Positions 18,725-19,662 of a stretch of 64,000 nucleotides of DNA are shown piece by piece. The stretch is from positions 1 through 64,000 of the forward strand of contig NZ_JAEFCB010000027.1 of assembly GCF_016405905.1 (NCBI RefSeq). Direction: 5' to 3'. Under the pieces are notes generated by a model, which was not told the origin of the DNA, did not search any database, and worked only from the letters and a program-made list of their open reading frames with translations. Numbering within the stretch: position 1 is the stretch's first letter; each line of letters starts with the position of its first letter. This DNA comes from Variovorax sp. IB41. Lineage in GTDB: Bacteria > Pseudomonadota > Gammaproteobacteria > Burkholderiales > Burkholderiaceae_C. The position numbers were made by a program, and so were the translations under genes.

Positions 18725-18741
18725 TTGGCACGCTCCCTGCT
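18725..18741 (+). promoter_or_regulatory. Sigma-54 (-24/-12) promoter of torF-glnK-amtB
   Basis: TTTGGCACGCTCCCTGC at 18724-18740 contains the invariant GG and GC separated by exactly 10 bp, and TGGCACG matches the -24 element perfectly; the -12 box CTGC differs from TTGC at one base. It lies 53 bp before the torF ATG. With glnK and amtB downstream, this is the expected RpoN/NtrC-controlled promoter. Confidence 0.85.
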
Positions 18742-18792
18742 TTGAGGGTGTTCAGGTCCCACAACACTTTCTTACTTGCGAGGAGTTTCCCG

Positions 18793-19662
18793 ATGACGCA
18801 CCGTTCCGCCGTCCAGGCGCTGATCGTTCTGGCCACTGCATTGACCGCGTCGGGCGCCGCCCTGGCGCAGACGGCACCGGCAGACCCGGCGCCCGCCCCG
18901 GCGCCCTCGCTGACCGGCAATATCTCGCTGACCACGAACTACAAGTTCCGCGGCCAGGACCAGGACATGATCGGCCGCAACGACTACGCCAAGACCCGGG
19001 GCCTTAAGCCCGCCGTTCAAGGCGGCTTCGACTACGCCTTCGGCGACAGCGGCTTCTACGTGGGCAACTGGAACTCCAGCGTCAACTGGCTCAAGGGCAA
19101 CAGCATCGAGACCGACCTGTACGGCGGCTACAAGTTCAAGGCCGGCCCGATCGACATGGACGTCGGTGCCCTGACCTACATCTACCCGGGCAACTCCGCG
19201 GGCAACACGACCGAGCTGTACCTGGGCGCCACCTACGCCAACGAAACCTTCGGCTCGTTCACCGCCAAGTACTCGCACACGGTTTCCAAGGACTACTTCG
19301 GCTACGCCGGCAACAAGGCCGGCTCGGGCCTGAAGGGCCGCAACACCGGCTACCTGAACCTGGCGTACAGCAAGGAAATCGTGCCCAAGGTCACGCTGAA
19401 GGCGGCCGTTGGCTTCACGAACATGTCCAGCGACATCCGGAGCCTCGGCTACAAGAGCTACGTGGACTACAACGTCGGCGCCTCGTATGACTTCGGCAAC
19501 GGCCTGTCGCTCACCGGCTCGGTGCAGGGCGCCAACAAGAAGACCAACTACCAGGTCGTCGCGAACCCGGGCATCGACATCCCCGACTTCGGCACCTTCG
19601 GCACCACGTACTACTCGCCGAACAAGGCGCGCTTCATCCTCACGCTGACGAAGACGCTCTAA
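18793..19662 (+). CDS. TorF-family putative porin
   Basis: A 289-residue outer-membrane beta-barrel of the gcw_chp/TorF type. Signal peptide residues 1-27 end in GAALAQ, followed by a short Pro-rich linker and [16 protein letters not shown], the family signature. The rest alternates beta strands with aromatic girdles and ends in [11 protein letters not shown], a barrel C-terminal strand. The start is ATG 18793 with GAGGAG 8 bp upstream, downstream of the sigma-54 promoter; the longer frame would start inside the promoter. Position before glnK-amtB suggests an outer-membrane route for a nitrogen source, but the substrate is not known. Confidence 0.88.

What the first reader, a model, noticed from the sequence alone, without database searches (positions are those of the whole stretch)
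18725..19662. TorF porin placed under sigma-54 control with glnK-amtB
A near-perfect -24/-12 element (GG-N10-GC) precedes torF, and glnK and amtB follow in the same direction. This argues that TorF, a porin family with no proven substrate, is an outer-membrane component of nitrogen scavenging, possibly letting in ammonium, urea or amino compounds when nitrogen is limiting.
Basis: partly seen in the sequence, partly recalled or inferred. Interest (0 to 1): 0.6.

Follow-up and report, generated by a model that had tools for sequence, protein, structure and literature searches.

The report
Nitrogen-starvation operon with cation porin
The outer-membrane porin gene torF is the first gene of a conserved nitrogen-limitation (sigma-54) operon with the ammonium-uptake genes glnK and amtB, as already shown experimentally in a relative under the name nlmA, and because sister copies of the same porin sit repeatedly in potassium-uptake (kdp) operons, it is probably an outer-membrane channel for small positive ions such as ammonium and potassium.

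Summary
TGGCACGCTCCCTGCT (18726-18741) lies 51 bp before torF (18793-19662), followed co-directionally by glnK and amtB. One such match is not significant alone (15 in the genome, 26 for the reversed control), but conservation settles it: 135 of 138 glnK-linked torF genes across Burkholderiales and relatives carry it, against 2 of 43 torF copies elsewhere. Genomes without torF keep the same element directly before glnK-amtB. The genome has RpoN and NtrC; NtrC-like enhancers are common in relatives but not recognisable in the window's own lineage.

The regulation is not new: Herbaspirillum seropedicae nlmA-glnK-amtB is an NtrC-dependent, 21-fold nitrogen-regulated operon (PMC3023670). NlmA = TorF is inferred from synteny, not from its sequence.

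The new result is about substrate. About half of torF copies not beside glnK (21 of 44) lie within about 3 kb of kdpA, often inside the operon (kdpA-kdpB-torF-kdpC), in Burkholderiales and Alphaproteobacteria; others abut amtB without glnK. Tree labels switch between glnK and kdp at least 13 times. TorF is modelled as a 12-stranded barrel with conserved acidic residues predicted to face the lumen. Best reading: a channel for small monovalent cations (NH4+, K+). The channel function is untested.

The parts
18726..18741 (+). sigma-54 -24/-12 promoter element TGGCACGCTCCCTGCT
   Evidence: Sequence; conserved in 135 of 138 glnK-linked torF loci and 2 of 43 unlinked copies; the same element precedes glnK directly in torF-less genomes.
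18793..19662 (+). torF: TorF/Gcw_chp-family putative porin, 289 aa with signal sequence; modelled as a 12-stranded outer-membrane barrel; probable counterpart of Herbaspirillum NlmA
19675..19697 (+). torF-glnK intercistronic hairpin GGTGCGGC-N7-GCCGCACC (terminator-like, weak T tract); possible read-through control or torF mRNA stabiliser
   Evidence: -19.8 kcal/mol for the 65-nt spacer; in the genus L041 and L043 keep the stem with changed pairs (GGCGCGGC/GCCGCGCC); absent in most other lineages, where the gap is often 11-30 nt. Function inferred.
19728..20066 (+). glnK, P-II nitrogen regulator
   Evidence: NF007946 above cut-off, PF00543.
20095..21636 (+). amtB, ammonium transporter with a long Ala/Pro-rich N-terminal region after its signal sequence
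   Evidence: TIGR00836 above cut-off, PF00909.
17028..18569 (-). comM/yifB (Mg chelatase-like ATPase), divergent neighbour; conserved flank, not part of the operon
   Evidence: TIGR00368; conserved next to torF-glnK-amtB or glnK-amtB across the order.

Best explanation
torF is the promoter-proximal gene of a torF-glnK-amtB operon read from one sigma-54 promoter, switched on under nitrogen limitation, most likely by NtrC. TorF is a 12-stranded outer-membrane barrel that, in the best-supported reading, lets small monovalent cations across the outer membrane: NH4+ for AmtB here, and K+ for KdpFABC where sister copies sit in kdp operons. Established here by sequence comparison: gene order, shared promoter, absence of an internal sigma-54 site, family membership, repeated kdp and amt linkage. 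Shown elsewhere by experiment: NtrC-dependent nitrogen induction of nlmA-glnK-amtB in Herbaspirillum. Inferred: NlmA = TorF, NtrC acting at this particular promoter, the barrel being an open cation-preferring channel. The operon and its control are about 0.9 likely; the cation-channel step is the weak one and sets the confidence given.
For: Promoter: 61/61 and 74/77 glnK-linked torF genes carry the -24/-12 element, unlinked copies 2/43, shuffles about 3%. No internal sigma-54 site between torF and glnK (3 borderline of 111). torF-less genomes keep the promoter 33-281 bp before glnK (18 of 20). NtrC-like palindromes, often about 60 and about 92 bp upstream of the -24, in 84 of 111 loci at p<=0.05. 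RpoN and NtrC encoded. Experiments: Herbaspirillum nlmA-glnK-amtB 21-fold and NtrC-dependent, NlmA in membranes under N limitation (PMC3023670); glnK of Burkholderia cenocepacia NtrC-dependent (PMC5491218). Substrate: 21 of 44 torF copies not beside glnK lie near kdpA, inside the operon as kdpA-kdpB-torF-kdpC in Burkholderiales (L076) and in an alphaproteobacterium-like genome of another class (L402); torF next to amtB without glnK between in L293, L300, L391, L394, L396, L405; at least 13 label changes on the tree. Fold: 12 strands, pTM 0.76; nearest solved folds include the small-solute channels NanC, KdgM and Tsx. E106, D108, D123 and E141 are (nearly) invariant in amt-, glnK- and kdp-linked members, while basic K114 and K159 are not kept in amt-linked distant members.
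Against: No NtrC-type enhancer is recognisable upstream of torF in the window, in its near relatives L041-L042 and L044-L046, or in several Cupriavidus loci, so the activator here is inferred. NH4+ and K+ can cross general porins, so need for a dedicated channel is not proven. Lumen orientation rests on strand alternation, not on coordinates. Interior charges can also form a salt-bridge core, as in OmpA. torF is absent from many genomes that keep glnK-amtB, so it is dispensable. Outside Burkholderiales most sampled torF genes (51 of 60) have neither amt nor kdp beside them. No conductance or growth data exist.
Confidence: 0.5

Rival explanations
1. TorF is a non-selective small-solute porin that raises outer-membrane permeability when any nutrient is scarce; amt and kdp operons are simply strongly starvation-induced sites.
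For: Most torF genes outside Burkholderiales lie in other contexts (51 of 60), including beside two-component regulators, BCCT-like and ABC genes. The fold resembles several unrelated channels.
Against: Two high-affinity monovalent-cation uptake systems recur as partners in more than one class; no recurrent phosphate, sugar, urea or amino-acid uptake cluster stood out in the neighbour clustering. Acidic positions are (nearly) invariant across partners.
Confidence: 0.27
2. As the first reader also allowed: TorF admits urea or amino compounds during nitrogen limitation.
For: It is expressed with nitrogen-scavenging genes; some gammaproteobacterial copies adjoin a BCCT-like transporter and a GMC oxidoreductase resembling choline dehydrogenase.
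Against: kdp linkage is unexplained by nitrogen compounds; the recurrent nitrogen partner is AmtB, including torF-amtB pairs without glnK between.
Confidence: 0.1
3. TorF is a closed barrel with a structural, sensory or surface role under nutrient stress, not a channel; its operon position may be partly historical.
For: No member is shown to conduct in the material searched; the charged interior could be a salt-bridge core; torF is dispensable in many relatives.
Against: A 12-stranded barrel leaves room for a pore, and the best structural neighbours are channels; the partners are specifically ion-uptake systems, recruited repeatedly.
Confidence: 0.13

Closest known systems
nlmA(orf1)-glnK-amtB operon of Herbaspirillum seropedicae
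   Same: Gene order membrane protein-glnK-amtB; nitrogen-limitation and NtrC dependence shown there (PMC3023670); same order of bacteria; relatives of its family (Noviherbaspirillum soli L150, Undibacterium L097) carry torF-glnK-amtB with the -24/-12 element.
   Different: The NlmA sequence could not be retrieved here, so identity with TorF is by synteny; that paper placed NlmA most probably in the periplasm, whereas TorF is modelled as an outer-membrane barrel. The enhancers usual in relatives are not recognisable in the window.
TorF/Gcw_chp family (TIGR02001, PF09694), named after Shewanella torF
   Same: Scores above both curated cut-offs.
   Different: Context is ammonium uptake, not TMAO reduction; the family name carries no evidence for a substrate here.
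Nutrient-paired specific porins (for example NanC, KdgM, Tsx; OprP for phosphate)
   Same: Porin gene expressed with the cognate inner-membrane uptake genes; predicted 12-stranded fold like NanC, KdgM and Tsx.
   Different: Proposed substrate is a small monovalent cation; no detectable sequence similarity to solved structures.

Membership tests
TorF/Gcw_chp porin family | Match above the curated cut-off of TIGR02001 and PF09694 | tested here: met
   121.2 bits vs 47.15; 133.9 bits vs 24
TorF/Gcw_chp porin family | Outer-membrane beta-barrel | tested here: met
   By prediction only: AlphaFold2 12 strands, pTM 0.76, porin folds as nearest matches
TorF/Gcw_chp porin family | Forms a channel | not testable with these tools
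   Needs conductance measurement
Sigma-54-dependent promoter | -24/-12 element GG-N10-GC conserved at the right place | tested here: met
Sigma-54-dependent promoter | Transcription requires RpoN | not testable with these tools
   RpoN gene present
NtrC regulon (nlmA-glnK-amtB type operon) | NtrC-binding enhancers upstream | tested here: not met
   No consensus site near torF in the window and none significant in this locus (p 0.19), although 84 of 111 loci have them; degenerate sites are possible
NtrC regulon (nlmA-glnK-amtB type operon) | Gene order membrane protein-glnK-amtB | tested here: met
NtrC regulon (nlmA-glnK-amtB type operon) | NlmA is a TorF-family protein | tested here: inconclusive
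   H. seropedicae genome not found by primer-pattern searches; synteny in named relatives supports it
Monovalent-cation channel | Repeated linkage to NH4+ and K+ uptake genes | tested here: met
Monovalent-cation channel | Cation selectivity | not testable with these tools
   Only indirect: (nearly) invariant acidic residues predicted lumen-facing

The most novel reading that the evidence does not exclude
TorF proteins are a family of outer-membrane channels for small monovalent cations, recruited many times independently to whichever high-affinity inner-membrane system needs them (AmtB for NH4+, KdpABC for K+), showing that the outer membrane can limit ammonium and potassium scavenging, notably in bacteria of a group with a known anion-selective porin (Omp32).
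Probability: 0.45. Interest if true: 0.75.

Novelty: new variant of a known kind. Interest (0 to 1): 0.55.

Why it matters
Ammonium and potassium are assumed to cross the outer membrane freely through general porins. A porin family that follows high-affinity ammonium and potassium importers from operon to operon would mean this step can limit growth and is regulated. It would give a substrate to a widespread family still listed as of unknown function (PF09694; TIGR02001 found in half of 397 sampled genomes of the phylum), and it makes the question testable in one conductance experiment and two growth experiments.

Tried and rejected
Significance from the single -24/-12 match: rejected, chance matches are common. 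NtrC sites in the window: sought and not found; a genome-wide search for the NtrC palindrome gave many hits, 58 per strand against 13 for the reversed control, not informative for this locus. Getting the Herbaspirillum seropedicae nlmA sequence through published primer sequences: not found in about 400 family genomes each time; G331/L072 matched one primer but not the other, so it was not taken as that species. An internal sigma-54 promoter for glnK-amtB: absent. Solved homologues by sequence: none. Papers on TorF, Gcw_chp or a porin in a kdp operon: none relevant to this function in the held library. Two KdpB-only hits at 2.2-4.4 kb (L302, L303) were not counted as kdp linkage. Counts are not phylogenetically independent, so p-values are only illustrative.

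Full report
Observation. The window holds, on the + strand, torF (18793-19662), glnK (19728-20066) and amtB (20095-21636), with comM/yifB divergent at 17028-18569. The element TGGCACGCTCCCTGCT (18726-18741) has GG and GC ten bases apart and ends 51 bp before the torF ATG.

Is it more than chance? Not from the one sequence: TGGCACGN5TGCW has 15 exact matches in the genome against 26 for the reversed control, and the window has no excess of near matches. Comparison decides. In 80 named genome loci, 61 of 61 glnK-linked torF genes have the element and 1 of 19 others. In a second set of regions, 74 of 77 glnK-linked, 0 of 10 kdp-linked and 1 of 14 other copies have it, with shuffles at about 3%. 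In the window's near relatives the core is the one conserved block of an otherwise variable upstream region. Twenty glnK-amtB loci of family members without torF nearby were read: 18 keep the element 33-281 bp before glnK, so torF behaves as a cassette inserted behind, or lost from behind, the glnK promoter. Only 3 of 111 loci have even a borderline second element between torF and glnK, so under sigma-54 control glnK and amtB depend on transcription through torF.

Activator. RpoN and an NtrC above the curated cut-off are encoded. In 84 of 111 linked loci an NtrC-type palindrome scores above shuffles, often at about 61-63 and 91-94 bp upstream of the -24 element. The window's locus and its near relatives L041-L042 and L044-L046 lack a significant one, as do several Cupriavidus loci; of the nearest relatives only L043 reaches p 0.04. 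NtrC control here is therefore inferred from relatives and from experiment elsewhere.

What was known. [quoted passage not shown] I could not retrieve that species' sequence, but relatives of its family have torF-glnK-amtB with the same promoter (L150 Noviherbaspirillum, L097 Undibacterium). In Burkholderia cenocepacia glnK is strongly NtrC-dependent (PMC5491218), and in Paraburkholderia phymatum a predicted RpoN site lies directly before glnK-amtB (PMC5979394), matching the torF-less arrangement.

Other torF copies. The window's genome has a second, 81% identical torF (C46:79759-80535) without the promoter and with unrelated neighbours. Elsewhere the non-glnK copies are revealing. Nine of 18 informative named copies and 12 of 26 others have kdpA within about 3 kb. 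In L076 the order is kdpA-kdpB-torF-kdpC; in L101, L106, L108, L112, L115 (Massilia, Duganella and kin) and L135 (Ralstonia) torF precedes kdpA. Two Burkholderiales copies (L293, L300) and four copies from outside the class (L391, L394, L396, L405) adjoin amtB without glnK between. A tree of 85 TorF proteins needs at least 13 changes between glnK and kdp linkage, with close glnK/kdp pairs such as Ralstonia L152/L135 and L036/L307, both at 99 SH-aLRT. Copies in kdp operons lack the sigma-54 element, so regulation appears to follow the partner.

Protein. AlphaFold2 gives a 12-stranded barrel (mean pLDDT 79.5, pTM 0.76). Nearest solved folds include NanC, KdgM and Tsx, 12-stranded solute channels, at about 10% identity. 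By strand alternation D80, E106, D108, D123, E141 and D225 face the lumen; E106, D108, D123 and E141 are invariant or nearly so in glnK-, amt- and kdp-linked members, whereas basic K114 and K159 are not kept in the distant amt-linked ones. This fits a cation-preferring channel but does not prove one. A known major porin of a related genus, Omp32 of Delftia/Comamonas acidovorans, is strongly anion-selective (cited in PMC4863599), which would give a dedicated cation path a purpose; whether the window species has such a porin was not checked.

Conclusion. Sigma-54 control of torF-glnK-amtB: about 0.9 likely, and already known in kind. TorF as a monovalent-cation channel serving AmtB here and Kdp elsewhere: about 0.45-0.5, new as far as the held library shows, and directly testable.

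Noticed in passing
window 19675-19697: Terminator-like hairpin between torF and glnK, kept with changed base pairs in the genus; it could make torF mRNA more abundant than glnK-amtB.
   Followed up: partly
G000:C46:79759-80535 (L009, L165): Second torF, 81% identical, no sigma-54 element, unrelated neighbours; also present in congener G247 (L216).
   Followed up: partly
L351, L354, L359, L365: Gammaproteobacterial torF genes 3-73 bp from a BCCT-like transporter, with a GMC oxidoreductase resembling choline dehydrogenase nearby; choline is also a small cation.
   Followed up: partly
L129:2937-4768: Two torF genes near each other: one leads torF-glnK-amtB, the other is divergent and lies toward comM.
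   Followed up: no
upstream of torF in L136, L144, L145, L148, L149 (Cupriavidus): Perfect -24/-12 consensus but no NtrC-like palindrome within 250 bp, like the window's own lineage; another activator or weak sites may be used.
   Followed up: no
window 20095-20330: AmtB precursor has an unusually long Ala/Pro-rich stretch after its signal sequence.
   Followed up: no
window 8916-16383: Open reading frames that look like type VI secretion genes (TssM-, TagF- and serine/threonine kinase-like) upstream of this locus, judged by eye from the translations only.
   Followed up: no
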